Notes under the pieces: model-generated
Told to the model about the DNA's origin: nothing
Databases searched by the model: none
What the model saw: the letters and a program-made list of their open reading frames with translations, nothing else
Shown here: piece by piece, positions 30,871-59,647 of the stretch
How the letters are laid out: each line of letters begins with the position of its first letter
How positions within the stretch are numbered: the first letter of the stretch is position 1
Assembly: GCF_037975245.1 (NCBI RefSeq)
Contig: NC_092572.1
Span: 6,277,501 to 6,341,500 of the forward strand
Length of the DNA stretch: 64,000 nucleotides
Direction of reading: 5' to 3'
DNA from: Apostichopus japonicus
Taxonomy: Eukaryota > Echinodermata > Holothuroidea > Aspidochirotida > Stichopodidae
Program-made: the position numbers and the translations under genes

Positions 30871-30883
30871 TCTCTCTAGGTAC

Positions 30884-33400: not shown

Positions 33401-33418
33401 AAGGTCGGTTTGGGCCAC

Positions 33419-34868
33419 TTAATGCTCCCCGGGTAGAAGTGACCGTGGGGAGTTTAAATTAACCTGGGTTGGGGTTCTGCAAAACGTTGCTATGTGGACG
33501 GACCGATTGCACCTAAAGCATCTGGTCTGGGGGCTCTGACGAGCCAGGTGTCCTACAACCCCACATTTAAAACATTTTGGGGGCACCCTGTTCATCAAGG
33601 GGGGTATATAATTTGACATACGGGGGTTTGGGGTTGATTCCTCGCTCTCCTGTCTGCCTGCTCTTTGGAGCTCCTCAAGTGTCTTGGTAAGCTCCCTAAC
33701 CTTTGCCTCCAAGTCAGGGACCACTGGGGACGGGGTTGCCGAATGCATTAGCACTCTGCCAGTCTGGGTATTTCTTTTGAGGTGTCTCCGGTCAGCACAC
33801 TCTTGTTCGACCAAACGTGTCAGCCGAAGGAGATCTCCAAAGTTTCTCGCCTCTTGGTAGTTGTGCCGAACGGCCCCCCTTATGTCATCGTCCACGAGCC
33901 CCTTCCAAAATACTACCCTAAGGGTCCGGTCCACCTCTTCTGCAGAGATCCCTCCTCTGTCTCTGGCCTTCATGACAAGGCTTTCTAATCTACACCCAAA
34001 TGCTGCAGTTGTTTCCCCTTTCTGCTGGTGTGTATTATAGGCCTGTTCTAGCAAGTCAGCCCCTGATTCCACAGTTCAATAAATCCCCTCCAGCTTTTCA
34101 ACTATTTCCTCAATACTTGAGTTTGGGCCTAAATGTCTTACTACCCTGGCCGCTTGGCCCCTCAGGGAATTCCTTACTGCATTTCTATAACCTCCTTAGA
34201 GTGCACTTCTTGTTGCAGGAGACAAGAGATCTCGTACTCCCTCATCTCACGCTTAATTTATTGTTGGTCTCCCCAGCAAAGACCCAAATTCTTGAGGGTT
34301 GGATGATGGTGGTCCCCAAGGGTTGGCGAGCTGGGGGAACTGAACCCGCTGAGGATAAGCTCAGGTTATCATCTTTTTGCACTGTGTAACCTGCTAGCTT
34401 TAAGGATTGATCATGTCTTGTCGAGACATCTCGCTTGAGGGGCTTTGTATCGAAAGGCTGAGGGAAATTCCCTTGAAAACCTCATCCTTCAGATCTGTCA
34501 CTGCCTTTTCTGCTATCTCTGCAGACACATACTCACACAAACCAACGCTAGGGTTACCATTAAACCTGAACGAATTTACTTCCCCTACTCTACCCATATA
34601 ATTCTTCAAGTCTTCCAAGTCAATGTCCCGGGGGATACCCTTAACAGTTACAACCTTACCTTCCATGGTTTCTATGGTAACACGGGAGAAGACTGGAGTA
34701 ATAAATTTAGTGTACACTCAGAAGGTCAAATGTGTAAAGGCATGTGAAGGAATAATGGTTGTAAACTTTTTAGGGTTCTACTGTGCAGTAAGCTATTCTA
34801 GAAACTTCTCTGCAGAGACTGAGATGTATACTACACGCTCAGTTGTAACATTGGTGGAATTACTCATA
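33419..34868 (-). pseudogene. gypsy gag with RRM-like N-terminus and CCHC knuckles
   Basis: A possible start ATG lies at 34868 followed by two stops. The next block has VVTVKGIPRDIDLEDLKNYM, which looks like the first strand and helix of an RNA-recognition (RRM-type) fold. A capsid-like helical region follows (GQAARVVRHLGPNSSIEEI), with a stop before VESGADLLEQAYNTHQQ. Two zinc knuckles end the frame. In CFKCGVVGHLARQS the fourth cysteine is replaced by serine, while CFRCNRSVHIATFC keeps CX2CX4HX4C. Gag would bind the element's RNA. The stops and frameshifts make it non-functional. Confidence 0.8.
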
Positions 34869-35064
34869 TAATATAACTTGTGAAAACTGGAACATAAGAT
34901 ATGGATGCAAACTCTGCTCTCACCTTAAAGGCAATTAAGTTGAAAATGTTTGACATTTAAAATAACATTGAAATTAAGTATGACTGGGTGAACATGTCGC
35001 CTTCTCAATGACCTAATCTCAGAGAAATAAATTGTAATCAGGTCCCATAAACGGGCTCCAATTA

Positions 35065-36821
35065 TGTAGCCGGCCAAAAACGCATTGACCAGGCCTAAAT
35101 ATTTTTTTTTTTAGGTTTGGGAAGATTACAAGTGACACCTCCAAATTAGGTAGGCCGGTTTACTCTGAGATCGTGGGGACAACTTAAAAAGGCAGAATGC
35201 TCACACACAAAAAAAAAAAAATAAAGGTAAAGTGGTGTGTTAACAATGCACATGGACGTTGTATTAATATCATTAGGGTTACTTTAACTTAATGTGAAAT
35301 TATATAAATGGGTGTAACTTACATATCTCGGAACTCTTACTTCTTATAACGACTCCACTGAACTTAATGGAAAAATAATACATATCAGTCCCAACGAAAA
35401 TAATAACAAAATCGCGGCGCGGGTCGACCGAATACAATTTGAGAACGAAATTGTCTCCTTGGGGAACTTCTAAGGCGGTTTTTGGGGACGTCTCTGGATT
35501 GGGTGGTTCTCTGGACAGCTCGCGATTCGGGGAAATAACCTCTTTTAGCGTCCCAGCTTGGGCGTCTCTAAGAGAAACTGCTCATCACTCGGGTTGGGTC
35601 ATCGCAGGGGTTCACTTCCGGATCCAAACATTGAATTAAAATGGGAATTGATAGTTTAGTTCCATCACAACAGAAAATTATAGGGTTGCCAGATATTAGC
35701 ACAGGATGAAAAACAGTTCTGCCTCCAGTGGTACAGCTCCGGGTTATAAACTTTTATTAAATATGAAATTTCCTTGTAAAACAGTTCCAGGTTTTTACTA
35801 AAATAGAATATCCATTTGTAGAACAAGCTCCAGGTATTCACTAAACTTCTATAAAAATTCCATGGGTAAATAGCTTCAATTAAGTGTCCATTTAACTTCT
35901 AATTAATTGAATACTGGTCCTCTACTCTATTACTGGTGAAGTTAGTCTAAGAAAATAATTATGATCTCGTGCCCAACCATTTCAAACTTAATCCTTCCCC
36001 TCTTCTCCTCTGACTATTACAAACTTAATCCTTCCACTCTTCTCCTCTAACTACTGTAAACTTAACTCGGCGTCAGTGTCTTATCTTAATTTCCCCCTAC
36101 CATGCTACCCTATTCACTCCATCCCATAATAATTAGAATACATCCCATAATAATAAGAATACATCCCTTAATAATAAGAATACATCCCATAATAATAAGA
36201 ATACATCCCATAATAATAGTACAAGGCAGCTCACACATGACCACCTTAAAACAATTAAACACAAAGCTTGGTTCATTGAATATTCATGATTTAGCCTTTG
36301 TCTCAACTCCCCCCCCCCTACTCTAGACCAGCTTGCCCTCCACTTCCTGGTATCCGAGGTCCAGTGACCAACCAGCTGTCAATTAACACTTAATACATAA
36401 TTTACCAGACACATTACTTAATTTATGGTGTTCCTTGGTACATTTAAAATAATCATCTATCACCAAAACATTCCTATCTAACCAAACAAAAGTTATAAAA
36501 TTGTCTATTTAACCTACAGTTCTGAAAAGGGATAGACTCTTGGAGCCACTCATATATTCCTAGAAAATAGGACCACGCAAAACAATTACTTAGCTTAATA
36601 AAAATACAGGTCACACAGGGCCACCCGTTGCCTGTAGAAGTTAGCAATTAAAGTGAAAATTAAGGGAACTCATTAATCTACCAAGTAAAGTTTATTCATT
36701 GTCAAATGAATTAAAACAAACAAAAGAAAATGATCAAATGAATAAAAACAAAAGTAAAAAAAAGAAAAGAAAAGAAAATAATAACTATACAAAACATTAA
36801 CCAGGTTATGCTCTGGTTACA
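35065..36821 (-). mobile_element. 5' LTR of the Ty3/gypsy element (right copy)
   Basis: The LTR is 1757 bp with TG..CA ends (tgtagccggcc at 35065, gctctggttaca at 36821). On the minus strand it begins TGTAACCAGAGC and ends GGCCGGCTACA, directly before the internal region. From 35261 onward it is collinear with the left copy at 24522-26655. It holds five units of the 21-bp minisatellite at 36120-36220. Confidence 0.8.
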
Positions 36822-37397
36822 CAATGACAAATGACGTAAAAAAGGAGATGAAACAAAAATATTAGAGATATAACGTTGGGATTTCGAGATAAAACATTTT
36901 CCACTACCAAATATTCCAATAAATCAACCTTTTTAAGCTCCGTGGGCGTTTCCCCTACTTTTAGAACCTACTCCATTTCCATAAGGTTACTATCTAATTA
37001 CTTCAATGTGTTTGTTTATGTGTTTTTTGAAACAACAATACTGTGGCAATATTGGGTAACAGAACAAGCTAAATATATGAAGGTAGACATTTTCTGACAG
37101 GTTTCCGAGTTACCAGTTATCCGTGGCAGTTCAGATAAAAAGCATTTTACATATAAAAGATATACAAGGGTAAAGACATTGTAATTTTATTCAAAGTGAC
37201 CAAATGTTAAAACAAATAAGTCATAATTTCAATTGCAAAAGAAAAAAAAAGAAAGAAAAAGGTATGTACACATTTTCAGATGTTACATGATACACAATTT
37301 AGTTATCTTTGCTATCGTGTCATCATTCCACATGTATTAGTATAATGTCAGTCGCTGTCAATCTAAATGTTTTCGGCAACTGGGAGAATACTTCTAT
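36822..37397. repeat. LTR-flank segment, right copy (paired with 26656-27221)
   Basis: This segment runs from 'caatgacaaatgacg' to 'aatacttctat', nearly identical to the left copy. A few indels separate them, such as an extra 'tagtat' near 37338. Confidence 0.8.
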
Positions 37398-37427: not shown

Positions 37428-37881
37428 TAAGTTTCAGTAGCTGGGCCTCGGGGGTATGAGGTTGATATATTTCCCATAATGCTCACATAGTAGAAGCCCT
37501 GTGTGCACATTTTCATACACCGTAACGAGAAAAATAATATGTAATGTTAATACTTTCAAGAAGAGGAAAAAGATATATCGACAGAGACAAAGACGAACAC
37601 TTGTATGTGACATGATCATATATTGTACTAAATAAGAACTAAATTTTTGTGATAAGTTTCAGTAGCTGGGCCTCGGGGGTATGAGGTTGATATATTTCCC
37701 ATAATGCTCACATAGTAGAAGCCCTGTGTGCACATTTTCATACACCGTAACGAGAAAAATAATATGTAATGTTAATACTTTCAAGAAGAGGAAAAAAATA
37801 TATCGACAGAGACAAAGACGAACACTTGTATGTGACATGATCATATATTGTACTAAATAAGAACTAAATTTTTGTGATAAG
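37428..37881. repeat. near-perfect 225-bp tandem duplication
   Basis: 37428-37652 and 37653-37877 are identical except for one g/a difference (aaaaagatata against aaaaaaatata); the first bases 'taag' recur at the end. Identical 61-residue minus-strand frames in the two copies are a consequence. It starts 30 bp beyond the duplicated LTR flank. Confidence 0.95.
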
Positions 37882-41234: not shown

Positions 41235-44014
41235 ATCCGGAGAATTGATACGTAGGTCTGGACTGGTGCAAGAAGCTTTCAGAGGCCTTGAAACCAACGC
41301 TCAGCAGTTCGGAATCCTCGAATCATTGGTACTTGAGAATGTTCTCATAGAAACTGTTAAATAGAATGACAGCTCATCCAAAAGCGTCAACCTACATTGA
41401 TTTTTTTTTTACCTAGAGTCCTATCGTTAGGCATGAAGTGCCCAATAATTTTCCAGATTGTGAGAAATAAAACTAACAAATAAATACACATAATTGTGAG
41501 CCACTTCAAAGGTTATATGTGCGTGGAATGTAAAACAAAACGGGAATCTTTATCAAGTTTCTATTAATAAACATCTGATATATTAAAATAACATGGATAT
41601 ACGAAACAGTTTGTTGATACTCGATGTATACTAATGGGATGTAACAAAACGTAACAGTGCTTATCTAAGAAGGAAGCATACTGCTTGTTTCACGACGTTT
41701 TCAAGGGTCCAAGAAACTGATATGCGGCATTTAACTGAAGAGATATACAACTCGCAGGGTGTAATTGCGTCTGTCCGTTGGCATTACACTGGCAGTGACA
41801 CAGATATGACTAGCCTAGCTACAAGTTACCTAGTACTGAAATACTACAAGTTAACCTTGTATTAAAGCTGCAGTAGTAACTAGCGTTAGGCTTTATCCAA
41901 TTGCTAGGATAGGAATGTAGAAATCAACTCAAGTAATTGTGATAACAAACTTTGTTGGGGCTGAAATGACAATCTGCTCTTGCTTTTGCCTATATAGGCC
42001 TACCTGTAATTAAGAAGCCTAATATGCAATACGACAGAGGTCTTTTGTAGACATATATCTTCCAAGCAAATGAAGATGCGATTCAATGGTTGTGGTAAAG
42101 GTGCATCCTTTTTGAGGTTAGGAAGTGGTAAATTGTATTTTATGACATTTTAATGTATGCACATGTGAGACACCATGCATCGCCGAAAGCTTCTGAGAGT
42201 TGCAATATGGTGTAAATTTACAGAAAGAAAACATTATTATATTACAGTAAAAAAGAATTTTAAGTAGACAGCAGTCTACTGTGACTACTTAAAATGTTGC
42301 AATACATTGTTTAGGCTTACATCTACGATGGTGTGTTGTTCCATTGTAACTTTTAATATTCTTCAATAAAAGCATGTAAATTTAGAAACAGCATGTCAAT
42401 CATATTCCAGCGGCATATTTTTTTAGAAAAGACTATTACCATTTTTTTGGCGAAGTTATATTTTTATGGAGTTTATCTATTTCGTCTTCTATATTGACTT
42501 CTATTTTGTCAGTATGCATATAATGTACCAGTTTTCATTTGGACAATCCGATACATCGGTTGAAAATAGTGAGAAAGTATACGGAAATATATTTTGGGTT
42601 AGGGTTTGATCCAAAATCGTTTAGCGTGTTGGCCTATTTCCCAAGAAACTGCATCATGCACCAATTTATACACAGAAATAATGGCATCTTGGTTGTTTAT
42701 TACAATTATTTGCTTTTAATTGGGATTCGGGACTTCGTTTGGAGCAAGTATGAATTTTATATGACAAAGCGTGGAATTAATCTATTGTAGTCACTGCTGC
42801 TACAGTCATTTCTGTCAGGTAAATCCAATTATTGCACCCATTGAAAACTTGTTGTCAGGGTCTCCAAGAGTTATGTACTTTGTTAGATTGTTCGTTTACA
42901 CAATTTAAGTATCCTTTCCAGATCTGGGGTACGGGTTGTCAATTTAATTGGTACCTTGACATTGTTACCTGTTAACCAATTGGAAGTTAATTTACGTGAC
43001 TCTTCTTGACTACATATTAACCAGGGAGCTGCTACACCCGATCCATTTAAAACAGTTTTCCTCCCAAAGTGTAGCACTAACGTATTTTCTGAAATTGCTT
43101 TCTTCCATTCTCATTTCATTTTATTTGTTGTTTAGTGTAAGATGGTTGTTAAGGCGAAGAAACAAAATAATTGGATAAACCAAAAGTAGAAGAAACCAAA
43201 CTTATACAAATTTCTGAAAAAGATTATAAGTTGAACTGTCAACTAAAGTTTAATTACACAGACAAGTAATGTGCCAAGAAACGAGTAAAACCCCATACAA
43301 GGACTAATCCTCAACTACTTAATCGTTAAATGACGTAAAGAAATAGAATAGAGCACGGTATAAAATGTAAAGATATTATCATACTAAAACAGTGGTTGTA
43401 CGTTTAACTCTTTACGCTGATTTAATCAATGTGTGTGCAATGATCGATCTCTAAAGAATACACATTTTCCCTGTATATCTCAATTTTAAAGACATCTGAG
43501 GTTTGTAGAACGAAGGTATGGAAGTGGCTCCATTTCTTACACGTGACCGATGGATAACATTCAACCTTTCGTAAAATAGGTTAGTTAATAATTTTAATAA
43601 CACTGCAGAATGAGTCCTACCTTCTAGAAAACATCACATATTACACCTACATTGCTAAAACGGTCAACCTGAGATTGAACAAACTCACTATTAAATGTTT
43701 TACTGACCAACTAGTCTTAGAAGGAAAGTGAGCTATTCTGGTTGGAAAGAAAATGCGTTTAAGCCTAAGTACAATATAATGAGTGAACACTGGTATGCAG
43801 AAACGAATAACCACATGTCATGGCTATATTTTATTTCGATCTAAATTTGCAGCCGAAGTACAACACTTCAAGGAATAATTAGCACACAAGAATAAGATTG
43901 AACACTAGTGTTCAAAATACAGATAAAAATATGTCTGCGCTTGTTTATATGTTAATTCAATGCAAAGTTACAATGAGTTTTCTCTTTTCTGTCGTTACAG
44001 CTGACAAAATAGAG

Positions 44015-47000
44015 ATGGGCAATCAACAATCTACTAACCGTGCATGTGAAAAGTGTAATATTTTGTTACCGCACACCGATTCTCAAAGAAACCAGTATAT
44101 CGAGGAGACTGAATACGTTGTCTATAATTTTTTGTCTGCGGGAAAGTATTTTCGATCTGTCAATAGCACAAACTCTTATGTTTGCTCTCCGTGTTTTTTC
44201 AATGCGTTGCGTGACCTTTACGAACGTAGAAATGAAACACGTTTCGACCTTAGATTCGAAGATGAATTGACCAGCGCGCAGGTGGAGAAAATACAAGAAC
44301 ATGTAATACATGACGTCTTCGTTGACGAATTCCGGTCTCAGCATGCATTCAACCTGACAGTAGATGATGAAGATATTTGTGATGGCAGAAGTAATTCCAT
44401 CGACAGATTATGTTTGATAGAACTCACCAAACAAGTTTGGCAAGAAGAATCACCAGTAAGCGAAAGTAGCCTTAAAAAGCTAAGGAGCAATGATATAACC
44501 ACTTCAAAAAAACTCACTGATAAACTTGTGCCGTCTTTGTTGTATTCGTATTTATACTCTCGTTATACGTTCAAGTTCTTTCTTACACTTGAATCGCACA
44601 ACGTTATGAGAGCATCGGAAGACTATTTACGTTCATTGCAGAAACCCTCATGCTCACTAGATAAACTCAAGAATGAATTGTTCGGAAAGTCTAACAATGA
44701 TTTAACTTGGCTTCGATTGTTTCTAGTTGACTTGTATGTCCACATGAGCAAGGTCAGTCCCAGTGATCGTACTATGATATCGCACTATCTCGCATGTCTC
44801 CTGAATCAATGTTTCAACGACGTAACAGCCAATAGCAATGACCGGGTTATGTTCACCGTTTGTATTATTCAAACTGTTATTTATATTACCCTGAATGGTA
44901 AAAGCGTGTACGAAGATGAAATTATCTTATGTTTCTTAAGAACTATGTTGAAAGAAGCAACATCACATTGTATCTTATGGTCTGCAGAATGTAAACACAT
45001 TTTCATAAGAGAAAAACTTCGTTTTTTAAGCCTTCATAACTTCAGTAGGCATTGTTATCTTATATACAGTTCTACGTTTTGGAATATTGATAAAATTGAA
45101 GAATTGTTGGATATTATCCTGCAGAAGACACAGTTAAAGGAAACCATTGATATTTTTAATTTGATAAAAGCTCACGGATTAACGCCAAGTGATAAAACAC
45201 TATCGAAACTGAAGTCATGTCAAGACATCAATCACGTTCTCAAACATATGACCAACACTGAGTCTGAAACAACTCTGAATGCAATATTTGATGAGCTAAG
45301 AGAGAAAGGATATTCAACTGAACTTTTAAGCACAGTAAGGTTCATCTGTTTGGAAGTCAGAAACGTTTTCGACAAAGTATGCGAGGGTAGTTTCTCTACA
45401 ATACTTCTAGAAGAAGAGGTGAAAAAGCATACCAGGTTTCTATCACGCCACACACGCCTTAGATCGCTCGTAAATATTATGGCTTCTGTATCATATGGTG
45501 TCAATCACTTCCTAAGATATCGTCCGCGAGATGTACAGCTAATTAGCTGCATCATTATGATTCTCACTGGGGAAACCCAAGGTCGGCTGTTAGAAATAGG
45601 CACCGGCGAAGGTAAGTCATGTGTTATTGCAATGTTGGCGATTTCTTTAACCCTATTTCGCCCAGGAAAATCAATTGACATAGTTACCAGTTCCAGTGTT
45701 CTTGCTAAACGCGACTTTAGACAGTGGCAAAAGCTTTATCAGTTTTTTGATGTATCTTTTGGGACAAATACAAGCTTTCGATCAAGCGATAATTCATCAT
45801 GTTATCAAAATACTGTCGTTCTCGGGACAGTAGGCTCATTTTCATCAGATTTCTTACGCCATGAGCTTCAGCAAACCGATAGCAAGGGAATGAGCAAATT
45901 TCAGATTGTAATAGTGGACGAGGTCGACTCGATGTTACTTGATAGAGGAATCCATTTTACCTACTTGTCGCAAGATATTACAGGTATGAGACACCTTGAA
46001 CCGCTGATTTCAATGATATGGTATCGTGTTTCTGAATTAACAAGAACGGAAACAATAGAAGGCAATATATTTTGGCAAATGGGTCAACTCGCATTTTATC
46101 AGTTCTGTCTGAATTTACTTGAAAGAATCTCCCAGTCCGTGAACCAAATTTCTGCATTGTTCAACCGCGCTGAAGAGAGAGGAATTCTTCCAAAGGAATT
46201 TCGATCAGAAATTTTGCTTCAATTGGAAACTGTTCCTGGACAAATTCCTAAATGCATTACCGACATAAGCGACGAAAAGGTAAAAAAGTTTTTAGAACTC
46301 TGTGAAAGACGATCCAATATACGTTTTGTCTTCTATAAAACAACAAAAAAAGGAATATGCGAAAGGATTTCGTGTAAAAAAGAAAACCCTAAATCAGGTA
46401 AAACGGAAGTAAAAGTCATGTTGCTCGGGAAGGGAATGGTGTGTGAGCTCAATGATTACACTGAAACAGAGCCCATAGATGTAATACGTGAAACAGTTTT
46501 ATCACAAATTGATTTCGAGGATGACGGTAAAGATATAGACAAGTTACCAATTCCTTCGTACTACAAAGATTTAGTAATGAGTCAAATCACTGTTTGGATT
46601 TGTAATGCATTTGAAGCTAAAACAATGCAACTCGAACGAGATTATTTAATAAAGCAGGAACTCATTTATCCAGTGGATTACAAGTTCACAGGGATAATAG
46701 AAAGCAACAAGAAATGGGGAGATGGTCTGCAACAATTTCTGGAGATGAAGCATTCTTTAGCTCTCAGTCCAATGGCTGTTATTACTAATTTCATGTCATA
46801 TATAACTTTCTTCAAGAAGTATGAACAAATATATGGTGTTACTGCAACTTTGGGTTTCGAAGAAGAGAGAGAATTTCTTCGGCAAAAATACAAAGTTTCT
46901 CTCTATTCAATACCTCCGTGGATGAGAAGCAAGTTGTTTGAAAACTTAGGGAAGGTAACTTATTCAAAGGTTGATTGGTTTACCGAGATTTGTTCAGCGT

Positions 47001-49396
47001 TGAATAGGGAACTTCAATCAAGAGCGGTCCTGGTAATGTGCGAAGATATCAAAACTGCAGACGAACTTCGAAAGGAAATAGAAGAGAACTGTAAACCACG
47101 AAAAATTATTATGTATACTCGAAACTCAACTGACGAAGAAATGATGGTTAATGAAAAATTATGTCAAGGTCATGTTGTACTAGCTACAAATCTTGCTGGG
47201 AGAGGAACTGATATTAAGGTATCAGATGAAGTCAATGCCAATAGTGGACTACATTTAATTTTAACGTTCTTACCTATGAACTCAAGAGTTGAGCGGCAAG
47301 CTAGAGGTCGAACAGCAAGGGGAGGAAACCCTGGATCTACAGAGCTTATTATACTTAGCCAAGATTTGCACAAAGGATTATCTAATGTGCATGCCATTCA
47401 TGCCGTGAAACTAAATCGAGAAAAATTAGAAAAGAAAGGGATGAAAATTTTTGAAACTAACACCAAGAATGTCCTTAAGAAAGACAGTCTTTTTGAGCAA
47501 TATTGTATCTTTTTACAAGAGCTGAGACGTAACTATAAGCAAGAGAATAGGAGCATTCTGAAAGAGATTTTACACTTACTTCATGAAAAATGGGGTATTT
47601 GGCTGAAAATAAATTCGACAAGCGATGCATTTTACAATTTACAAGAACAACTACGAAAAGAGGTAACCATGATATTTAAAGATGAGCAGAAAAAATGTAA
47701 CGCGTACAGTATGATTAAGATTGGAAATGTTTTTATGCTAGATAATAAATACAGTGAGGCGATTAAATATTATGACAGCGTGATAACAGATTCAAACAGA
47801 TGGTCGGTAGTCGCTTACTACAACAAGGCTTTTTGTGTTTTGAAATGTGAAAGTAAGGAACCTCTAAAAATTAAGGAACCTCTAAAAATTGCCATCGAAT
47901 GTCTTGAAAATGCCTCAAATAAACTTCAAACCTACTTTCACGAGGTCACCGTTACCTTGACCTGCTGCAGAAATAGTACTGTTGAAAAAAATAAAGGTGC
48001 TATATCTAATCCGCTCGTCGATCAAGCGCAGAATCGAATTCAAATTCTCAATTTCTTTCAAGAATCAATAGAAAAACTTGTTCTAGAGCTTACGGCAATT
48101 GATGGAAGTAAACCATTCACACCTAGCACTGTGAAGTGCAAACATATCTGGTCTTTACTCGGGGACTTTCGGCAAGGAACTAGAGCTACTTGCATATTCA
48201 TTGAGAAGGAATTAAACTGTTTGCAAGATATGGGTATTTTGCAATTATATGCTCTTAATAATAGACCTTGGTATAGATCTGATCGGTTTCTTCTTTGTGT
48301 TGTAGGAGTAAGTCAAATAGCGATCGGTTGTCTACTTTTACAACTTTCTTGCGGGACACTGGTGACAATCGGTCCGGAATTAATAGGTGAGGGTATAAAG
48401 GACATATTAAATGCGGGTTTTTTTGATCCAGTGAGAGAATATTCGTGGGAGAAATGGGGTATGGAAAAGGGTATGAGCCTTGCGTTGATATGTCTCACGC
48501 CCATGGCTACTCACTATGGTGGAAAAGTAAAAGCACTCATTTTCCCTGGTAGTAAAAAAGTAAGTGGTCTCAAAACTGCTGCAGAAAATGTTGGAGAGAG
48601 TGTCGTAAAAAACAAAGATCAGTTACTAACTGCTGGCAAAGTTATCGCTAAAAAGTTTATTTCACAGCTTGCTTGTAAAGTAGGCAAACCATATATCGAT
48701 TCAAACGTGTCAAAAACTTTGACTATCGTAATCAATCAATTAAAATTTCAAATTTGTTCACAAATTAAGAAATTTCTTCAAACAGAGACGTTATTTCGAT
48801 CAACTGTACAAAGATATATATCTAAAACACAGACCGCGCTGACTGATAGTGATATTCGGATCGAAATCGAAATTATGTATACAAAAAGCATGGAAAGAGC
48901 AATGGACGAATGTGCTAAACATGTAGAATGGCAGCGATTGGTAATGGGTAAAGTTGTGATGATTGTCAACTGGGTACCAAATGTGGGAGGGACCAGTTCT
49001 GCAGGATTAATATTGGAACTTTTGGCACAATATAAGCAAATCTTAACATCGGCTGCATCCACTATTGTGGAAGCACATCATCTATACGACGGATTGAATA
49101 AAGTGTTCGAAGAATTTGAAAGAAACATTAGTCTTCCTCTCGCAGAAACTTCCATCCAAGAAAGTAATTGGATTAATCGATGCGAGAGAAAAGCTCGTAA
49201 GATTCTTGATAGATGTGCTCCTAAATTGACCGAAATTATTTGTGAGGGTGTAGTCAGTATCATAAAAGCACCTCTATCTGAGATGATTTTTAACCATACT
49301 AACTCTGCAGTAAATTCCGTCTTAGAGGAGAATATGGGAGACGATTCTGACACCGGTGACACAATCAGCGTTGAACAAGATTCGGAAGCTACGTAA
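44015..49396 (+). CDS. animal SecA-like DEAD motor protein, large single coding exon
   Basis: The open frame starts upstream at a TTG, but a strong acceptor ends at 44000 and the first ATG after it (44015) gives MGNQQSTNRA, a consensus N-myristoylation start; I take this start, 1793 residues. In that numbering, CxxC pairs (CEKC, CSPC) lie within the first 65 residues. DVQL is near 506, Walker A GTGEGKS at 529 and Walker B VIVDEVDSMLLD near 632-643. WGDGLQQFLEMKH is near 901, GVTATLGF near 941, ATNLAGRGTDI near 1056-1066 and RQARGRTARGG near 1093. These match bacterial and plastid SecA motor motifs in order, including the preprotein cross-linking region (TGEGKT, VDEVDS, W.DGL.Q.iE.K, GMTGT, TNMAGRGTDI, QLRGRSGRQG). 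A TPR-like pair follows near 1234-1290, then a hydrophobic glycine-rich module near 1426-1500 and a helical, acidic C-terminus. The roughly 480-residue N-terminal region is unrecognised. It should be an ATPase; its substrate is unknown. Confidence 0.9.
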   Translation: MGNQQSTNRACEKCNILLPHTDSQRNQYIEETEYVVYNFLSAGKYFRSVNSTNSYVCSPCFFNALRDLYERRNETRFDLRFEDELTSAQVEKIQEHVIHDVFVDEFRSQHAFNLTVDDEDICDGRSNSIDRLCLIELTKQVWQEESPVSESSLKKLRSNDITTSKKLTDKLVPSLLYSYLYSRYTFKFFLTLESHNVMRASEDYLRSLQKPSCSLDKLKNELFGKSNNDLTWLRLFLVDLYVHMSKVSPSDRTMISHYLACLLNQCFNDVTANSNDRVMFTVCIIQTVIYITLNGKSVYEDEIILCFLRTMLKEATSHCILWSAECKHIFIREKLRFLSLHNFSRHCYLIYSSTFWNIDKIEELLDIILQKTQLKETIDIFNLIKAHGLTPSDKTLSKLKSCQDINHVLKHMTNTESETTLNAIFDELREKGYSTELLSTVRFICLEVRNVFDKVCEGSFSTILLEEEVKKHTRFLSRHTRLRSLVNIMASVSYGVNHFLRYRPRDVQLISCIIMILTGETQGRLLEIGTGEGKSCVIAMLAISLTLFRPGKSIDIVTSSSVLAKRDFRQWQKLYQFFDVSFGTNTSFRSSDNSSCYQNTVVLGTVGSFSSDFLRHELQQTDSKGMSKFQIVIVDEVDSMLLDRGIHFTYLSQDITGMRHLEPLISMIWYRVSELTRTETIEGNIFWQMGQLAFYQFCLNLLERISQSVNQISALFNRAEERGILPKEFRSEILLQLETVPGQIPKCITDISDEKVKKFLELCERRSNIRFVFYKTTKKGICERISCKKENPKSGKTEVKVMLLGKGMVCELNDYTETEPIDVIRETVLSQIDFEDDGKDIDKLPIPSYYKDLVMSQITVWICNAFEAKTMQLERDYLIKQELIYPVDYKFTGIIESNKKWGDGLQQFLEMKHSLALSPMAVITNFMSYITFFKKYEQIYGVTATLGFEEEREFLRQKYKVSLYSIPPWMRSKLFENLGKVTYSKVDWFTEICSALNRELQSRAVLVMCEDIKTADELRKEIEENCKPRKIIMYTRNSTDEEMMVNEKLCQGHVVLATNLAGRGTDIKVSDEVNANSGLHLILTFLPMNSRVERQARGRTARGGNPGSTELIILSQDLHKGLSNVHAIHAVKLNREKLEKKGMKIFETNTKNVLKKDSLFEQYCIFLQELRRNYKQENRSILKEILHLLHEKWGIWLKINSTSDAFYNLQEQLRKEVTMIFKDEQKKCNAYSMIKIGNVFMLDNKYSEAIKYYDSVITDSNRWSVVAYYNKAFCVLKCESKEPLKIKEPLKIAIECLENASNKLQTYFHEVTVTLTCCRNSTVEKNKGAISNPLVDQAQNRIQILNFFQESIEKLVLELTAIDGSKPFTPSTVKCKHIWSLLGDFRQGTRATCIFIEKELNCLQDMGILQLYALNNRPWYRSDRFLLCVVGVSQIAIGCLLLQLSCGTLVTIGPELIGEGIKDILNAGFFDPVREYSWEKWGMEKGMSLALICLTPMATHYGGKVKALIFPGSKKVSGLKTAAENVGESVVKNKDQLLTAGKVIAKKFISQLACKVGKPYIDSNVSKTLTIVINQLKFQICSQIKKFLQTETLFRSTVQRYISKTQTALTDSDIRIEIEIMYTKSMERAMDECAKHVEWQRLVMGKVVMIVNWVPNVGGTSSAGLILELLAQYKQILTSAASTIVEAHHLYDGLNKVFEEFERNISLPLAETSIQESNWINRCERKARKILDRCAPKLTEIICEGVVSIIKAPLSEMIFNHTNSAVNSVLEENMGDDSDTGDTISVEQDSEAT
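47855..47890 (+). repeat. in-frame 18-bp tandem duplication in the SecA-like gene
   Basis: 'aaggaacctctaaaaatt' occurs twice in a row without differences, giving KEPLKIKEPLKI just after the TPR-like stretch. Confidence 0.95.
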
Positions 49397-49486: not shown

Positions 49487-50059
49487 TTTCAAGTCATTTA
49501 AGAAATTTTTACTAACAAGATTACTACATTACCGTTGTTTGCAAAGTCAAATTTTACTTGATGAAAAAGCTATTTCAGATGATAATGATAAACACATCAT
49601 AAAAAAGCCTTTATCCTAAGATACATGAATCCCTACAATCATACATCAACTTTTTTTGTTTATAAATTCTTGAATCAAATTGATAATTCTTTCTCACTTG
49701 TATTCTAAGACCTACTTAATAATTAACGATTTTTTCAAATTTTCGAAACATACCTACCTTAATTAATATGTATTAAACAAGTATTTAACTGTAAACTTAA
49801 CCACCTAATTAAAACATATCACATTTGACCTTTTATAACATGACGCTATATGAATATTATTTTTTGGTTTTGTTTTTTTGCCACCTTTTTTCAAACTTTG
49901 AATTCAATGTACAATTTTGTTTTTCCATTTTCGTCAATAAACAATAGCTATTTCTTAAATAGCGACCATAATTGTGAAAACTTAAGTGATCGATTAACCA
50001 AGTATATTAGAGTAATACCAATTTCGAAATATATAATAAACATTCCCACGCAGCAGATA

Positions 50060-53199: not shown

Positions 53200-53554
53200 C
53201 TGTTGAAGGTAAACATAAACAAAACACGGTCATTTAATTTCGCATGTGTTCATTGGAATATGAATGTGTTATTTCACATAACATTGTACGCACATCATAT
53301 ACGCTTAGAATAGCTAGATCAATATATTTGTTGCTATGGAGTTCACTAACTCGTTAACGTCTAGTTGTGACTTAAGTACTGAGTACAACAGATTCGTTAA
53401 AGACTCACCATTCACATTATATTCTTGTTAAAGGTTTAGATCAATCTGAAATCCTCAGCCCTTTAGCTAAACAAAATGATTATATGGGTAATCTGTCTTA
53501 CTCAGGTCAACGTTATTTGGAAACAGATTGCTCACAGGTTTCCTTCGTACTTAC

Positions 53555-54014
53555 ATCATTATCGTACCGTCGGTGATGTCGGACCAAAACAACATACCGT
53601 AATATACAGCAATGTCATAAGCTGCTGGATTAGTTAGATTACTGTAAATGACAATGCTTTCGTTTGAGGGGATGTTGAACTTCTTGATGCTATGACCGTG
53701 GACATATAAGAAGAGTGGAGGACTTCCGAGTGCCTTACATTTGGTGTGATTCGATAATTCGAATCCTTCAGAGCAGCTGCATAAGAAACCTCCGATCACG
53801 TTTACACACTCCTGACTGCACTTGTGTAGTGTCCATTCTTTGCACTCATCAATATCTACACAGGTACCATTCGTGGACGGTTGGTAACCGGGTTTACAAC
53901 CAACTCATCCATCGCCATCCACGAACTGGGCAATGCCATCATTCACCTGATCAGAAGGTATACAGGTGCCATCCATGCAAGCAAACTCTTTATTTGCACA
54001 TTCTACGCTCTGTA
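53555..54014 (-). pseudogene. LDLR-family exon: LDLa + EGF + propeller start, with stop codon
   Basis: The exon lies between an acceptor (atatacag) and a consensus donor (gtaagtac). It encodes an LDLa-like segment (CMDGTCIPSDQVNDGIAQ), a calcium-binding EGF (DIDECKEWTLHKCSQECVN) and the first propeller strands (LFWSDITDGTIM). After removing two split-codon bases at each end it is 456 bp, so the frame is preserved. An in-frame TGA replaces residues after VDGDG, and one LDLa cysteine is phenylalanine. Its paralogue at 62.4-62.9 kb lacks this stop. Confidence 0.8.
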
Positions 54015-54821
54015 CTGTATATTGTCAGAAAACAAACAATTTAATCGAATAAATAATGTAAGCTGAGGAACATGTTGGCATTAAGGTCTCTGCTGCATGT
54101 TATATGACTCGTCAGCACATGTAGCTATTGCACATTTCAAATAATTTAAACTATAAGGACCAATCATTCTACCGTAACGATATTGAGGTTAACAGACCGT
54201 AAAATTATACTAGTATACTTGGTGATTGATTAAGTCCAATAAAAAGTCCTACCGCAAATTTCTGTTCTCTCATCTTTCCCCGTTTTGATAATCATTAGAT
54301 CAATCTCATAGGAATGCGGGAATAGGAATAGGAATTCCGCGGCAGTGCACCCACTGAGCTAATCTTCAATAAATGGTATACAATATATAACCTAATGTTT
54401 CATTGTTCTCGTTTCCGATTGTTCTTGAAATTCATAGGTATCGCATTATCTAGTACAAAATTACAATAAGTGAAGGAATTCCAACTGCTATTCGATAATC
54501 CAAAAGGAACACTTCCACCCTCTCCTTAACATGAGTGATAGAAAATGGTGTTATAAACTTGTTCTGAAAGGTATTCAGTCAGCAACTGTACATGATACAC
54601 TCCAACTAGTGTTTACAATGTTCTGTGGCATACAACAGTTAAATTTGTAGAACTATTGCTTTTCTTTATATTGTGAATGACTGTGTCGTTTCATTACACT
54701 GAAGAAGACTAAATGGATAACGAAGGTGCCAAAAAAATAAAAAAATAAACTGTGAACATTTTTTCATCTTAATCTACTATAATATTCAAAAAGTATTTTT
54801 ACTAAACAAATTCAACCTTAC

Positions 54822-54959
54822 TGCAATTCCTTTCCTTTCTCCTTTCCTTTCCTTTTTCTGCAGGTTCAGCGCCTCCACAATCATTTTGACCATCACACTT
54901 CCTTTTCACTGGAATGCACTTTCCGTTACCATAATCAATTTTATCACTAGAACACTGGC
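54822..54959 (-). CDS. LDLR-family exon: single LDLa repeat
   Basis: A 138-bp symmetrical exon with acceptor 'tttttcttttgcag' and donor 'gtaagg'; both phases match the neighbouring exons. It encodes one LDL-receptor class A repeat, including GKCIPVKRKCDGQNDC. The usual acidic calcium-binding tail (DGSDE-like) is replaced by AEPAEKGKERRKERNC, encoded by a purine-rich ggaaa-type repeat, so calcium binding by this module is doubtful. On the gene's strand it lies just upstream of the stop-containing exon at 53.6-54.0 kb. Confidence 0.75.
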
Positions 54960-55089
54960 CTGCAAAAGAAAAACAAGCTCTTTTATCAGACCGAACGAAT
55001 TGAGGACACAACATGGAGCTTTTAAGTATGTTTACTTTCATTTTACAATCCCTCAGAAACGGCAGAATCTATTTTAAGTAGTGCAATCT

Positions 55090-58000
55090 CAATGAAAAAT
55101 TAATCATCTGTCTTCTCTTTACATAGATCATGGCCTTTGCAACATATTTAGAGAACCATGTAAAAATCGATGTTCTGTCTATTCAATCATCTTTAAAAAA
55201 ATACATAATAAAAACTTACAACGCAGCTTGCTGCGAGGCTGACTTACTGTATACAACAGAAACTTTACAACTGAGCAACATTAAAATGACAAGAACATCT
55301 AAATAATCTCGTAACATCATATGTTTCATCCTGAAAGCTGGATTTGTAGCTTTGGACTGAAAGGCGACAAATTTGCACTAAAATGATCCAAATATGTTCT
55401 CTTGCAGAGTTTGAAAAGTGGTCCACGGAATTTAAACTTACAATGAAACCAAACGCTAGCAAGATTATGACGAGAAATGTATGAGTACACAGACCCGCTT
55501 GTGTGTGTTGCTGCTGTTTCCAACTACAGAATAATTACAATTAGGGTTACACTTAGAGGAAATACTTGACCCAACAGTATCGGAAACTATCACTTTGAAT
55601 CCCAAAACACTCTCATTGGTAAAACTAACCTGCTTAAATTGAAGAGAGAACCCTTAACTTGACCTGCCAGGTAGCAATGGTGAATGATATCATCTGATAT
55701 CGGTATATATATACCTTCAAATTATAAGACCTAAGATATAAACTTTTTATCCAAACTGGCATGTCCAACGAAAGCTTGGAAATGTCGGAAAACTCTGTTT
55801 TCACGTTTGCGGGTTTTAATTTTAAAAATAAACAGGCAAACATATTTAATGTCGCCTTAAAAAGGTAACAGTGGCGTAGCTTCTTAAAGTAGGGTAGAAA
55901 ACTTACGTTAAGGGGCGTTCACTGAATGGATTTGCCTTTTGATGATACAATGACCGCGACCAACGCGAAAATTTCTCGCATAATATTTTACGCATAATTT
56001 CGAAATTTGCCTTATCAAATGTAGACACTATTTATCATTGCTGCACTGACTTGTATCCCCTCGAGCTACATAGGCATATATTGATTAAGTATATAGTTTT
56101 TTATGTGCTTTCTTTGAGGGATTCGATAAAACATTGATTGTGGTTAAGTAAATAATGCCATATGTGGAAGCGTAATATTATAATTGTGCGCCAACGTAGT
56201 CTTAATAAAAAAGAACATCGAGTTACTCCATCCAGGACCGGGAAATGAATGATGTTATCCACAGCCATTAAGAACAAGTAAAGTAACAGGTTCACCCGAT
56301 ACACTGTTGTATACATTTCTTGATAACGAGCACGGATGCAATACACAAGCTTAGCTCGAACAAGATGATCTGTACAACATGGCAATGTCGATTGTATAAG
56401 CATATAACGAAAAATTCACATTGGTTGGTTAAAATTGATTGTAGCCATGTCAAGGTCAGTTGTGTAAGCAAATAACGGAAATCCGCAATTGTTGGTTCAA
56501 AAGTGGTTATAGTAGTTATGATCTCTTTAATTCTAAATGATATTCCAGTCCGTTATTACTTTGCACGAACTACAAGGTCAATTGCCGCTAACAAATAATG
56601 CAATGAAAATGAAAGTGGCGTGATCTACGAAGTCCTTTCACCGAAGTATTACACATTAGCACATACACAGATATTTTACACTGCAATGAGGTCGACAGCA
56701 TTTCCTGTCCACCGAATCATAAAGATAATGCAATATCGTGATCTTAAAGCATTACAATATTGATCGCATCAAAATGAAGAACGCCAGTTGCTTGTGTTAC
56801 TTGTACATCTCTATATAGAAATAATAACAAATGCTTGTATATGAATAGAACAACTTGCTGTAATAGTATACAAAATGTTATACCCTACTGTCATTATAAT
56901 GACTAATAAATATTAGCGTTTTGACATTTATTCGTTACTATCACAGGGAAAGGTGAAAGGACTATACTTCTACCTGTGATCCTCAGTGGTGGCAAATTGG
57001 ATCAGTCGGAGTATTTTTGCCTTCAGCTGGGGAACAATTAGACCACTACGTCGCGTGTACACCCTCCCATTTATTTCAACCTCACAAATGGTATTGATTA
57101 GCATAAAATTGCGGCTAGAACAACTTGTATAAGCTTCATTTCTAATCTAAATATGCCGCACTTACATACCACTTGATGAAGAGAGGCCCCAAACCACCCT
57201 CCCTCCCCCGTGCATGGAAGTCGGCTTCACTGATCTCACGGCAGTCTTTGATCCTTCCATAAAGTTCAAACCTATACCAAAATCAGTCAGATGAATTGTT
57301 ACCTTTACATTTCTTACAGATATGGGCAAGTTTGACCAAGTATGGTTTCCTACATGGCTGTTAGGTTTGCTGCCGTTTTGTCATTTTAACAAGATCTTAA
57401 ATAGTACAAATGCAATTTTGAGTTTACTAATATTTTAACTATATAATGTCATATGCCAATTCACAACTACCCATGACCAGGTGCAAACCCACTGTTTGAA
57501 ACTCGTTTTTAATAAGCCTACGGTAACACATACATAGTATGCACGCGGGAAACATAAAACATAAGGATGGCCGTAGAACCGAAAAGATAAAAAGCTCATT
57601 TCGCCAACCACTATACTAACCCTTGTGTTCGATTCAGATTCGTTAAGAAGATACTTTAATCAGAGGGTTCATATTCACTATATTCGTTAGTATTTGATCA
57701 TCATTGTTATAGCAATATGGCCGCCACTGTTTCTTTCCTTTCATCTTATTAAAGAGTACGTGGATTACGGATGATGACGATCCAAATTGTATTCCTATAT
57801 TATTGTTTCAGATCCGAGAATGTACTGTAACTAGGCAACGGAACGGTTGCCGTCGTATTATTTAATAACAGTATTGGTACATGTGAAGCAGTATTGTCAC
57901 ACGTGTTGTCACTGAGCGGTGATACGGTAAATTCCGTTTAATTGAGTTGTTTTGCTAGAGTCACGTTGCTGTAGTCGCTCGCTACTTTGTACTCGAAGCT

Positions 58001-59470
58001 GTGCCCCTTTTGGCCAGACCGGTGGTTTCCCATGGAGGTTCTTCTACCATTCATTGTTTGTCAAGGCGGGCTAGTGTCAGTTGCTTAGTACCATACAGAT
58101 AATAGACATCTATTGGATTAAATTGGTAGGAAAATACGAGTGTTTCATTGGCTTGGGGTTTAACCTTTGGTGATATTGGAAACAGTGTTTTGAGTGAGGG
58201 AGGTGAGTTAAAGTATAATAGGGCGTCCCGGTTACACTAACGTATTTCAAGAGCGCCTCTCACGTTTTTCAATCTGCTTGACTGACTATACGATCGGTGG
58301 TGGCTTTCTGTAATACAGGGTACTTTACGTTTTCCGCTATTATGAGTTTTCCCAGATGTTTGCGAGTTGTCATAACCTGAATGGGACGCTAGTGCGGCTC
58401 CACTGAGTCATATCAGGGCCCCACGGGCGCTAGTAGGTGTGCTCGCCGCCAAGGTCACGGATGCGCAGTCAGTGTTTGTAAATATTGTACAAAGCGGTAA
58501 ATAAAATAATGTAAACACAGACAACCTGTTCTGGTATTCAGCGCTACAGCGTCTATCCATACCCCTACCCAGTACCCGTTTCCGACCCAATGGAATATGC
58601 CCCTTCCCTCCTTCATCCTTCTCCGATACCGAAGTTGAATTCACCAGAGGCATCAACAACACTCCCGAGGACGAAGGCAGCGTTACAGTTATGTCTGAGT
58701 AGATGACTGATACTATGGGCATCACAGAAGCCTTATTTTCTCGATTTAATGAAAGGTTTCTCTCACGAAGTACTGTTTTTTCACGAAGTATTTATTTTTT
58801 TGCCTTGCATCATTGTTTTTCCAAAGGTAAAACTTTACAATGGTACAAAAATACTAACACAAAAAAACAAAACAGAAATACAGATTTGTATCCAAAGTTT
58901 GCAGACTGTATATAGAATTCCTGGTGACATATTGTGAGTACGTTATATTTTCTAGTGAAGCAGAGATACAAAACATCGAAAGTCAGTTTTGGTTTAATGT
59001 TTCTCGTATTTAAGAATAGTGTTAATAATTCCTTGTCATTGAAGATGATATATGTAACTGGTGACATATTGTGAGAACATTATATTTATAGACAAGCAGG
59101 GATACAAAATATGTAAACAAATGCTGCTTCTCTAGCGATAGCCACGTCGAATGTAAGTTTTGGTTCACTATTTCACATATTTTCAGAATAGTGTAAACTG
59201 CAAAATGGAAAAGAACATTAATTTGATCGTTGGCTCAACGCTCTATGTGATTTTTCATATATTTTTTCCAGTACGTTTCCCAGCAGTTCGTTAATCTTGT
59301 GTAAAGAGTGCATTGCAAATATGTCCGATATGATTGTCTGGGCTAATGATTATTACTCCGAAAATTGGCTTATAATATCCTTCAATCTGTGTTTTGTTTC
59401 ATTTATATGTCAGTGTAATTAAAATTCCGTAACAGAACACCGCCACACGAGATAAATTAGTGTTGGTGCA
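55090..59470. other. presumed intron or intergenic DNA in the LDLR-family locus
   Basis: No further exon was recognised with confidence. It contains one pair of diverged ~137-bp direct repeats at 58921-59190. The minus-strand frame at 58408-58725 shows no domain I recognise. Confidence 0.45.
58921..59190. repeat. two-copy diverged ~137-bp tandem repeat
   Basis: 'tggtgacatattgtgagtac' at 58921 and 'tggtgacatattgtgagaac' at 59058 each begin a copy. Both continue with 'agcagagatacaaaa'-like and 'agttttggtt..agaatagtgt' blocks in the same order. Confidence 0.75.
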
Positions 59471-59471
59471 T

Positions 59472-59647
59472 TTAATCTAAAAGAAAATATTCCCAAATAT
59501 TTGATATTACAGTTTCTATCAGAGACTCCACAGTCGATGACTCGGAATTGAAGCATGTGTCACCTTCCGAACATAGACAAGAACAGGTGTGTCCTGTAGC
59601 AGCAACACCAATGTGATCACATTTAGAGTTTTCACAATAGTTTTGAC
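59472..59647 (-). CDS. LDLR-family exon: EGF-like, possibly terminal
   Basis: The acceptor 'cttctacag' is followed by GQNYCENSKCDHIGVAATG and HTCSCLCSEGDTC, a six-cysteine EGF-like pattern. The split-codon phase fits the donor of the propeller exon at 59975. The frame runs on to TAA at 59472. If that is used, the protein ends here without a membrane anchor; alternatively an unrecognised donor (for example gtaata near 59510) joins further exons. Confidence 0.65.

What the first reader, a model, noticed from the sequence alone, without database searches (positions are those of the whole stretch)
44015..49396. A complete SecA-type motor inside a 1.8-kilo-residue animal protein
All the main SecA motor motifs occur in order (Walker A GTGEGKS, VDEVDS, W.DGL.Q.lE.KH, ATNLAGRGTDI, RGRTARGG) in a host sequence that is clearly animal DNA. 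SecA is known as the preprotein translocation ATPase of bacteria and plastids, and animals have no SecA-dependent secretion pathway. Here the motor is embedded between a roughly 480-residue unknown N-terminus and a ~700-residue tail. I recall annotated but uncharacterised SecA-like proteins in marine invertebrates, so the family may not be new, but its biology appears undescribed.
Basis: partly seen in the sequence, partly recalled or inferred. Interest (0 to 1): 0.88.

Follow-up and report, generated by a model that had tools for sequence, protein, structure and literature searches.

The report
Animal SecA-like motor shared with symbionts
A single animal gene encodes an intact motor related to the bacterial protein-export ATPase SecA, but it lacks recognisable versions of the parts that feed proteins through a membrane channel and appears to belong to an already reported, uncharacterised family shared by invertebrates and the bacteria that live inside eukaryotic cells.

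Summary
Window 44015-49396 is one intact 1793-codon frame, the only match found in a 671.6-Mb, 35-contig genome, beside genes of animal type. All SecA ATPase motifs are present in order. It is not a bacterial contaminant, and not a conventional SecA: homology to canonical SecA covers only the two motor domains and the second half of the preprotein-binding domain (aa 481-1130). No SecA scaffold/wing domain was detected.

Its nearest relatives in the prokaryote collections searched are long (1.0-5.2 kaa) SecA-like proteins of intracellular bacteria (Rickettsiales, Amoebophilaceae, Legionella). They share its motor signature (20 of 24 diagnostic columns against 2) and its TPR plus hydrophobic tail. 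Ten of 12 such genomes examined also carry ordinary SecA.

The kind is in print: "eukaryotic-like secA" genes of insects, Daphnia, protists, Wolbachia and Amoebophilus (2013, PMC3639933; also PMC5062602). So this is a new member of a known, uncharacterised kind.

Best reading: a membrane-anchored SecA-type motor re-used for work other than SecYEG export, perhaps in host-symbiont conflict. The motor is shown by sequence; anchoring, substrate and role are inferred. Structure prediction never ran because the queue stayed full.

The parts
44015..49396 (+). Whole coding frame, 1793 aa, no intron inside the coding sequence
43981..44000 (+). Splice-acceptor-like pyrimidine tract ending in ACAG, 14 bases before the ATG; suggests an intron in the 5' leader (inferred, no RNA evidence)
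   Evidence: sequence read
44015..44032 (+). MGNQQS: N-myristoylation consensus at the N-terminus (prediction; the PROSITE-type pattern is recalled and was tested in a script)
44045..44194 (+). Two C-x-x-C pairs (aa 11-14 and 57-60), possible zinc site (inferred)
44015..45334 (+). N-terminal 440 aa without known domain; no other copy found in the host genome (one further hit at E 0.06); no significant match among the 110 bacterial frames in hand (best E 2.4)
45455..45931 (+). First ATPase domain from the start of profile homology (aa 481) to Walker B; Walker A GTGEGKS at 45599-45619, VDEVDS at 45914-45931
45950..46579 (+). About 210 aa (646-855) between Walker B and the resumption of clear homology; lies where SecA has the first half of the preprotein-binding domain, not alignable to it
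46667..46753 (+). YPVDYKFTGIIESNKKWGDGLQQFLEMKH, end of the preprotein-binding region and return to the ATPase domain
46835..46855 (+). Motif III region GVTATLG (TAT where the SecA-like and canonical rows shown mostly have TGT)
47009..47404 (+). Second ATPase domain to the end of homology to canonical SecA (aa 999-1130), with ATNLAGRGTDI (47183-47215) and FLPMNSRVERQARGRTARGG (47267-47326)
47702..47842 (+). TPR-type helical repeat (aa 1230-1276), clear in the family profile, below cut-off in this sequence alone
48281..48487 (+). Hydrophobic stretch (aa 1423-1454) and the following ELIGEGIKDILNA...YSWEKWGMEKGMSLAL module, shared with symbiont proteins
49936..49941 (+). AATAAA, possible polyadenylation signal (inferred)

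Best explanation
The locus is a host gene for a SecA-like ATPase of the 'eukaryotic-like secA' kind, a family distinct from export SecA that circulates between eukaryotes and their intracellular bacteria. It keeps SecA's two-lobed ATPase, so it most likely still couples ATP hydrolysis to pulling on, or unfolding, a polypeptide. It lacks recognisable SecA scaffold/wing domains and half of the preprotein clamp, so it should not drive a SecYEG channel. In their place it has a unique N-terminal arm, TPR repeats for docking partners and a hydrophobic tail module; with the N-myristoylation consensus this suggests a motor held on an animal intracellular membrane. The most likely setting is interaction with intracellular bacteria or the proteins they inject. 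Shown by sequence: intact host gene, ATPase motifs, SecA-like rather than canonical motor, missing SecA domains, shared tail. Inferred: ATPase activity, membrane anchoring, polypeptide substrate, conflict role. My separate confidences: identity and family 0.95; not a SecYEG translocase 0.85; polypeptide motor on a membrane 0.4; conflict role 0.25.
For: Profile match to canonical SecA over aa 481-1130 (hhalign 100%, E 4e-55); among solved structures the motor profile prefers SecA (275 bits) over any RNA helicase (best 38 bits). Plasmid tblastn, 129 records with a match, 20 listed: best are Ca. Megaera (378 summed bits), Ca. Bandiella (286) and Legionella geestiana (284); the other 17 listed are SecA/SecA2-type at 143-168. 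Identity 28-34% to 16 symbiont SecA-like rows against 19-24% to 10 canonical rows; of 24 columns that separate the two groups the window agrees with SecA-like at 20, canonical at 2, neither at 2. Trees: canonical SecA forms a group at 100/100 that excludes the window. Tail: 15 of 110 bacterial frames match the window's tail at E < 1e-4 and 3 more at about 1e-3, from about 13 genes, all SecA-like; the tail profile finds TPR structures. Distribution: 17 of 174 genomes in the order around a Rickettsia-titled genome against 1 of 397 in a phylum-wide sample; 9 of 241 in the order around an Amoebophilaceae-titled genome, these nine 0.8-2.7 Mb in size. Effector-like company, of 9 symbiont proteins scanned with Pfam: ankyrin repeats in 2, weak RickCE-type deubiquitinase matches in 3; RickCE itself is a biochemically shown effector deubiquitinase (PMC4961225, passages).
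Against: No expression, structure or biochemistry: structure prediction was busy in every attempt. No other animal sequence could be searched, so membership of the published insect/Daphnia clade is inferred from the literature, not tested. The tree alone does not exclude that the window leaves the stem between canonical and SecA-like (p-AU 0.39). Motif III reads TAT instead of TGT, which could alter coupling. The N-myristoylation signal is a short motif, and the upstream in-frame ATGs would destroy it if the 5' leader is not spliced. The RickCE-type matches are below Pfam's cut-off. The window gives no direct support for a conflict role: PADLOC gave 0 matches at E <= 0.01 and only one copy was found, not an expansion as immune families often show.
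Confidence: 0.5

Rival explanations
1. RNA-helicase-type role: the SecA-like motor, a relative of superfamily-2 helicases, works on RNA or RNA-protein complexes (for example antiviral) rather than on polypeptides.
For: Pfam DEAD (5e-7) and Helicase_C (4e-5) also match; PMC3482391 calls the Amoebophilus domains 'SecA-like helicase-related' (passage).
Against: The motor profile matches SecA at 275 bits and the best RNA helicase at 38; the SecA-specific end of the preprotein-binding domain is kept; no RNA-binding domain listed by Pfam.
Confidence: 0.12
2. Recent acquisition from an intracellular symbiont that sits in the animal genome without a function.
For: Nearest relatives in the collections searched, which hold no animal genomes besides the host, are symbiont genes; coding sequence without introns.
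Against: 1793 codons intact with the catalytic motifs kept; at most 34% identity to the symbiont proteins compared, hence not recent from any of these; host-like base composition (GC3 0.34; GC of two flanks 0.34 and 0.29); splice-acceptor-like and AATAAA signals.
Confidence: 0.12
3. Gene flow ran from eukaryotes to bacteria: the family arose in eukaryotes and symbionts captured it, so the animal gene is native and old.
For: Argued by Duplouy et al. 2013 from gene length and a tree (PMC3639933, section 9); PMC4256840 lists a Legionella fallonii SecA DEAD-like protein among transfers from eukaryotes (passage).
Against: The bacterial side is wider than the two captures drawn in the 2013 tree: 14 of 19 pattern loci match both motor halves, and deep, poorly resolved branches run through Rickettsiales and Bacteroidota. 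My single animal sequence cannot settle it: symbiont rows form one group without it in 0% of 200 bootstrap trees of the 26-row set (with a long-branch warning) and 35% in the 34-row set; holding it with canonical SecA, which includes the case of being sister to all SecA-like rows, is not rejected (p-AU 0.39).
Confidence: 0.35
4. A genuine SecA protein translocase working in the animal (for example in an organelle).
For: All ATPase motifs and the second half of the preprotein-binding domain.
Against: No scaffold/wing domain listed by Pfam (limit E 10, though HMMER's filters drop most matches above 0.1); alignment to canonical SecA stops at its residue 600 of 885; NCBIfam SecA scores far below cut-off; closer to SecA-like than to canonical SecA. 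A search for a bacterial-type SecY in the host could not be run.
Confidence: 0.03
5. Bacterial contamination of the assembly.
For: SecA is otherwise a bacterial and plastid protein.
Against: Window 6.28 Mb into a contig of a 671.6-Mb, 35-contig genome, no N, animal-type gene domains on both sides.
Confidence: 0.01

Closest known systems
'Eukaryotic-like secA' proteins: Wolbachia wBol1_1091/1092 and wHa homologues, with insect, Daphnia and protist relatives (PMC3639933; SecA of the phage WO eukaryotic association module, PMC5062602)
   Same: SecA-domain gene in an invertebrate, long protein, little evidence of introns, and in the papers' text closer to eukaryotic/symbiont relatives than to canonical SecA.
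   Different: I did not have those sequences, so no direct alignment; the host here is another, unidentified animal. A shared TPR and hydrophobic tail was not reported in the sections I read.
Long SecA-like proteins of intracellular bacteria (Ca. Megaera, Ca. Bandiella, Orientia chuto, Amoebophilaceae, Legionella geestiana plasmid)
   Same: Motor signature and, in many, TPR plus hydrophobic tail module; no SecA scaffold/wing listed in those scanned.
   Different: 1.0-5.2 kaa (some cut by contig ends) with other parts (ankyrin, HEAT, weak RickCE-like); carried beside a canonical SecA in 10 of 12 genomes. The window's N-terminus (aa 1-440) and last about 190 aa have no relative among them.
Canonical SecA / SecA2 preprotein translocase ATPase
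   Same: Two ATPase domains and the end of the preprotein-binding domain.
   Different: No scaffold/wing domains detected, first half of the preprotein-binding domain not recognisable, 19-24% identity to 10 rows.
Amoebophilus effectors with SecA-like helicase-related domains (PMC3482391); secondary SecA_DEAD proteins incl. Treponema SecA-TPR-NACHT (PMC4452313)
   Same: SecA-type motor in a protein with other domains, in a non-standard setting.
   Different: Known to me only from passages; bacterial.

Membership tests
Canonical SecA translocase | Walker A/B and SF2-type motifs of NBD1 and NBD2 in order | tested here: met
Canonical SecA translocase | Complete preprotein cross-linking domain | tested here: not met
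   SecA_PP_bind only positions 56-110 of 110, below cut-off; first half not alignable
Canonical SecA translocase | Helical scaffold and wing domains (Pfam SecA_SW; name recalled) | tested here: not met
   not listed at a limit of E 10, with HMMER's filters on; tail profile against canonical SecA gives 0.1% probability. A structural test was not possible
Canonical SecA translocase | Scores above curated NCBIfam SecA cut-offs | tested here: not met
   163.8 bits against 814 for PRK12904, 205.9 against 862 for PRK09200
Canonical SecA translocase | SecYEG partner in the same cell | not tested
   search for TIGR00967 in the host did not complete
SecA-like family of intracellular bacteria | Diagnostic motor residues against canonical SecA | tested here: met
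   20 of 24 columns against 2 of 24
SecA-like family of intracellular bacteria | Falls outside canonical SecA in a tree | tested here: met
   canonical group at 100/100 without the window, 9 and 12 canonical rows
SecA-like family of intracellular bacteria | Nested among SecA-like rows in a tree | tested here: inconclusive
   position open; SecA-like rows one group without it in 0% and 35% of 200 bootstrap trees; p-AU 0.39
SecA-like family of intracellular bacteria | TPR plus hydrophobic tail module after the motor | tested here: met
Published 'eukaryotic-like secA' clade (insects, Daphnia, protists, Wolbachia wBol1) | Clusters with those eukaryotic sequences | not testable with these tools
   no eukaryotic collection; only prose of PMC3639933
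DEAD-box RNA helicase | Best profile match is an RNA helicase | tested here: not met
   SecA 275 bits, best helicase 38 bits

The most novel reading that the evidence does not exclude
A SecA-type ATP-driven polypeptide motor, freed from SecYEG and held on animal membranes by N-myristoylation and a hydrophobic tail, extracts or unfolds proteins at the membrane and serves the animal in conflict with intracellular bacteria that carry the same module in their own giant effector-like proteins, so both sides use one shared engine.
Probability: 0.12. Interest if true: 0.85.

Novelty: new member of a known kind. Interest (0 to 1): 0.47.

Why it matters
Animals are not expected to use SecA, yet a SecA-type motor without recognisable export parts sits in an animal chromosome and, in the same arrangement, in giant proteins of bacteria that live inside eukaryotic cells. 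Establishing what one of these motors does would show whether protein-export ATPases have been re-used in host-symbiont conflict. The shared motor-TPR-hydrophobic architecture and the 24 diagnostic columns give a way to recognise the family and to test again the direction of gene flow, which the 2013 report inferred from a tree with two bacterial captures.

Tried and rejected
Contaminant: rejected. Conventional translocase: rejected. Paralogues in the host: none found with the whole protein, PF07517, the N-terminus (one chance-level hit, E 0.06) or the tail; the tool scores only the best candidates and searches exon by exon, so this is not proof of absence. Viral source: a protein scan and two DNA patterns found nothing; a profile scan found three IMG/VR loci (L075-L077) with long SecA-like genes, origin of those contigs not settled. 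Phage records: 25 with a match, 20 listed, 23-31% identity, mostly unannotated, which I take for ordinary bacterial SecA; a stricter motor search left one. Defence-system library: 0 matches for the window.

A tree test meant to ask whether the window could belong with canonical SecA does not answer that: it also holds if the window is sister to all SecA-like rows. In one search the intended cut of the canonical C-terminus failed (motif string not found), so the tail was compared with nearly the whole canonical protein (846 of 885 aa); no similarity appeared. Rows left out of trees: a Dehalococcoidia SecA (L014) after the first tree for its long branch; L011, a near copy of the Bandiella row; L037, cut short; L008 and L017, partial; L063, L066-L068, L071, L076 and L077 when the third tree was made. 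Frame-interrupted loci L018, L024 and L051 were left out of the alignments and not mended or joined. The 245- and 290-bit limits used for counting were chosen after seeing the score lists.

Host species was not identified. Structure prediction and fold search could not be run. Papers looked at without use: PMC11521996, PMC11077975, PMC10847448, PMC1800911 (passages only; no SecA-like gene of this kind in the passages shown).
Full report
What is there. Window 44015-49396 on the plus strand is one uninterrupted frame of 1793 codons. The longest stop-free run in 200 first-order shuffles of the same stretch was 180 codons. The expected SecA ATPase motifs occur in order. Pfam gives SecA_DEAD at 2e-33 and P-loop_SecA at 3.5e-12. 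The window is part of contig C12 of a 671.6-Mb assembly of 35 contigs and holds no N. Frames in it match galactose-3-O-sulfotransferase, an NHL repeat, LDL-receptor and EGF domains and a Ty3/gypsy-type element, so I take it for animal chromosomal DNA. Only this copy was found: the whole protein, the SecA_DEAD family and the tail each matched only this place, the N-terminus this place and one hit at E 0.06. A pyrimidine tract ending in ACAG precedes the ATG by 14 bases and AATAAA follows at 49936; both are only suggestive.

What it is not. Canonical SecA and this protein align over aa 481-1130 (hhalign probability 100%, E 4e-55), which is canonical residues 64-600 of 885. For the rest of SecA, the scaffold and wing domains, no counterpart was found: Pfam lists none (limit E 10, with HMMER's filters on), and the tail profile against canonical SecA gives 0.1% probability (where by a slip the tail was compared with 846 of 885 residues). 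The first half of the preprotein-binding domain is replaced by about 210 residues that do not align. NCBIfam SecA models are matched far below cut-off. Hence the two ATPase lobes are complete and the export parts are not recognisable.

Nearest relatives in hand. tblastn on 72,556 plasmid records found 129 with a match; of the 20 listed, the three best are SecA-like genes of Ca. Megaera polyxenophila and Ca. Bandiella woodruffii (both from a Euplotes culture) and Legionella geestiana, at 284-378 summed bits, against 143-168 for the other 17. The annotated proteins are 5225, 2966 and 2947 aa by their coordinates. A DNA pattern for RVExQxxGRTARxG in the collection of 84,980 prokaryote species genomes gave 19 loci; tblastn with the window protein matched 17 of 19, and 14 of 19 in both halves of the motor. 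Those 14, from 12 genomes, are by record title Rickettsiales or members of it (including Orientia chuto), Amoebophilaceae and other Bacteroidota, and one alphaproteobacterial MAG. The other five: one Legionellaceae and one gammaproteobacterial MAG with partial matches, a Dehalococcoidia frame of ordinary SecA size, and two loci (Desulfovibrio, Streptomyces) with none. The same pattern found nothing in viral contigs.

Second gene beside SecA. In the 12 genomes behind the loci used, 10 of 12 also hold a canonical-strength SecA match (359-434 bits), and all 12 hold at least one weaker SecA-like match of 62-150 bits, mostly in very long frames. Of the other two, both MAGs by title, one shows only an 80-bit piece in a 96-aa frame and the other no canonical-strength match.

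Membership. Over the motor the window is 28-34% identical to 16 SecA-like rows and 19-24% to 10 canonical rows; at 24 columns that separate the groups it agrees with SecA-like in 20 and canonical in 2. In trees canonical SecA forms a group at 100/100 without the window (26 rows; 34 rows), and the nearest rows by path are SecA-like. Its place relative to the SecA-like rows is unresolved: they form one group without it in 0% of 200 bootstrap trees in the first set, which carried a long-branch warning, and in 35% in the second; holding it with canonical SecA, which includes the case of being sister to all SecA-like rows, is not rejected (p-AU 0.39). So the direction of transfer cannot be read from my data.

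Shared tail. After the motor, 15 of 110 bacterial frames in hand match the window's tail (aa 1166-1793) at E < 1e-4 and three more at about 1e-3. Some frames are overlapping copies of one gene fetched twice; they stand for about 13 genes, all SecA-like, one of them interrupted. The tail profile finds TPR structures, and a hydrophobic stretch at aa 1423-1454 followed by a conserved EG-x-x-D-I pattern is common to both sides. The N-terminal 440 aa have no significant relative (best E 2.4).

Distribution. With the motor profile, the limits for counting were set after seeing the scores. In the order around a Rickettsia-titled genome, 17 of 174 genomes have a match of at least 245 bits; four more with 198-226 bits and frames of 433-907 aa were not counted as they look like ordinary SecA or are uncertain. 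In a phylum-wide sample, 2 of 398 qualify, one being the centre genome itself and the other with a stop inside; five others at 239-242 bits in 909-923-aa frames are taken as ordinary SecA. Without the centre in the second sample this is 17/174 against 1/397, Fisher p 1.3e-8; leaving it out of both, 16/173 against 1/397, p 3.9e-8. The order sample also contains two more genomes first found by the pattern (G002, G004). In the order around an Amoebophilaceae-titled genome, 9 of 241 have a match of at least 290 bits, five of them first found by the pattern; these nine genomes are 0.8-2.7 Mb; the listed ordinary SecA score 254-266 there, and at least three genomes of 0.7-1.2 Mb (G615, G732, G774) show ordinary SecA only at this limit. 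Only the best few candidates per genome are scored, so these are lower bounds.

Company. Of nine symbiont proteins scanned with Pfam, two carry ankyrin repeats, one HEAT repeats above cut-off, and three (Megaera, L076, L077) a weak RickCE-type catalytic domain, E 1e-4 to 2e-3, all below Pfam's cut-off. RickCE of Rickettsia bellii is a shown ubiquitin/NEDD8 protease (PMC4961225, passages). This fits effector-like proteins, but is not proof.

What is in print. Duplouy et al. 2013 (PMC3639933; passages, whole section 9) found two long secA-domain genes in Wolbachia wBol1-b with full-length or near-full-length matches to mosquito, ant and Daphnia proteins and weaker ones to protists, a eukaryotic clade separate from bacterial SecA, Amoebophilus genes inside it, few true introns, and argued for transfer from eukaryotes. 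Bordenstein and Bordenstein 2016 (PMC5062602; passages, section 6) list SecA among phage WO domains closer to invertebrates than to bacteria; PMC9203015 (passages) mentions the eukaryotic-like secA of WOHa2. PMC4256840 (passages) lists a Legionella fallonii SecA DEAD-like protein as acquired from eukaryotes; PMC3482391 (passage) names SecA-like domains in Amoebophilus effectors; PMC5037449 (passages) has a Daphnia similoides transcript with a SecA DEAD-like domain in its table of genes that differ most between sexual and parthenogenetic females. PMC8195603 (passage) has SecA-like domains in actinobacterial toxins, predicted there to help secretion; PMC4452313 (passages) describes secondary SecA_DEAD proteins, one with TPR and NACHT. 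I found no paper that assays an animal SecA-like protein in the full-text searches; the library holds open-licence papers only.

Mechanism. Shown by sequence: intact host gene, both ATPase lobes, SecA-like rather than canonical motor, no recognisable export parts, shared TPR and hydrophobic tail. Inferred: ATP hydrolysis, since Walker A and B and motifs V and VI are kept but motif III reads TAT; action on polypeptides, from SecA ancestry; membrane anchoring, from the MGNQQS start and the hydrophobic module; a role in encounters with intracellular bacteria, from who else carries the family. Confidence falls in that order.

Limits. No animal database, no transcript data, no structure (every request met a full queue), no test for a bacterial-type SecY partner, host species unknown.

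Noticed in passing
L003 (Ca. Megaera plasmid CP113870.1), L076 and L077 (IMG/VR contigs): Long SecA-like proteins also carry a weak RickCE-type (CE-clan deubiquitinase) catalytic domain, all below Pfam's cut-off, at different positions relative to the motor.
   Followed up: partly
L075 and L076: Two viral-collection contigs encode SecA-like frames of 3554 and 3556 aa; L075 has a neighbour matching phrog_25556 (E 2e-23). Whether these are phages of symbionts or misfiled plasmids is open.
   Followed up: partly
window 25900-37100: Ty3/gypsy-type element on the minus strand (about 29-35 kb) flanked by two copies of a similar block (an 81-aa frame beginning alike at 26688-26930 and 36852-37094; a 21-bp tandem repeat at 25924 and 36120), probably its long terminal repeats.
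   Followed up: no
window 53500-64000: Minus-strand LDL-receptor/EGF exons occur in at least two similar copies (for example 59946-60446 and 63457-63999), a probable duplication of an LRP-like gene.
   Followed up: no
window 37428-37881: Two 225-bp tandem copies, 99% alike, hence probably recent.
   Followed up: no
L018/L051 and L024: Some Amoebophilaceae SecA-like genes are interrupted by frame changes, suggesting decay of some copies or assembly errors.
   Followed up: no
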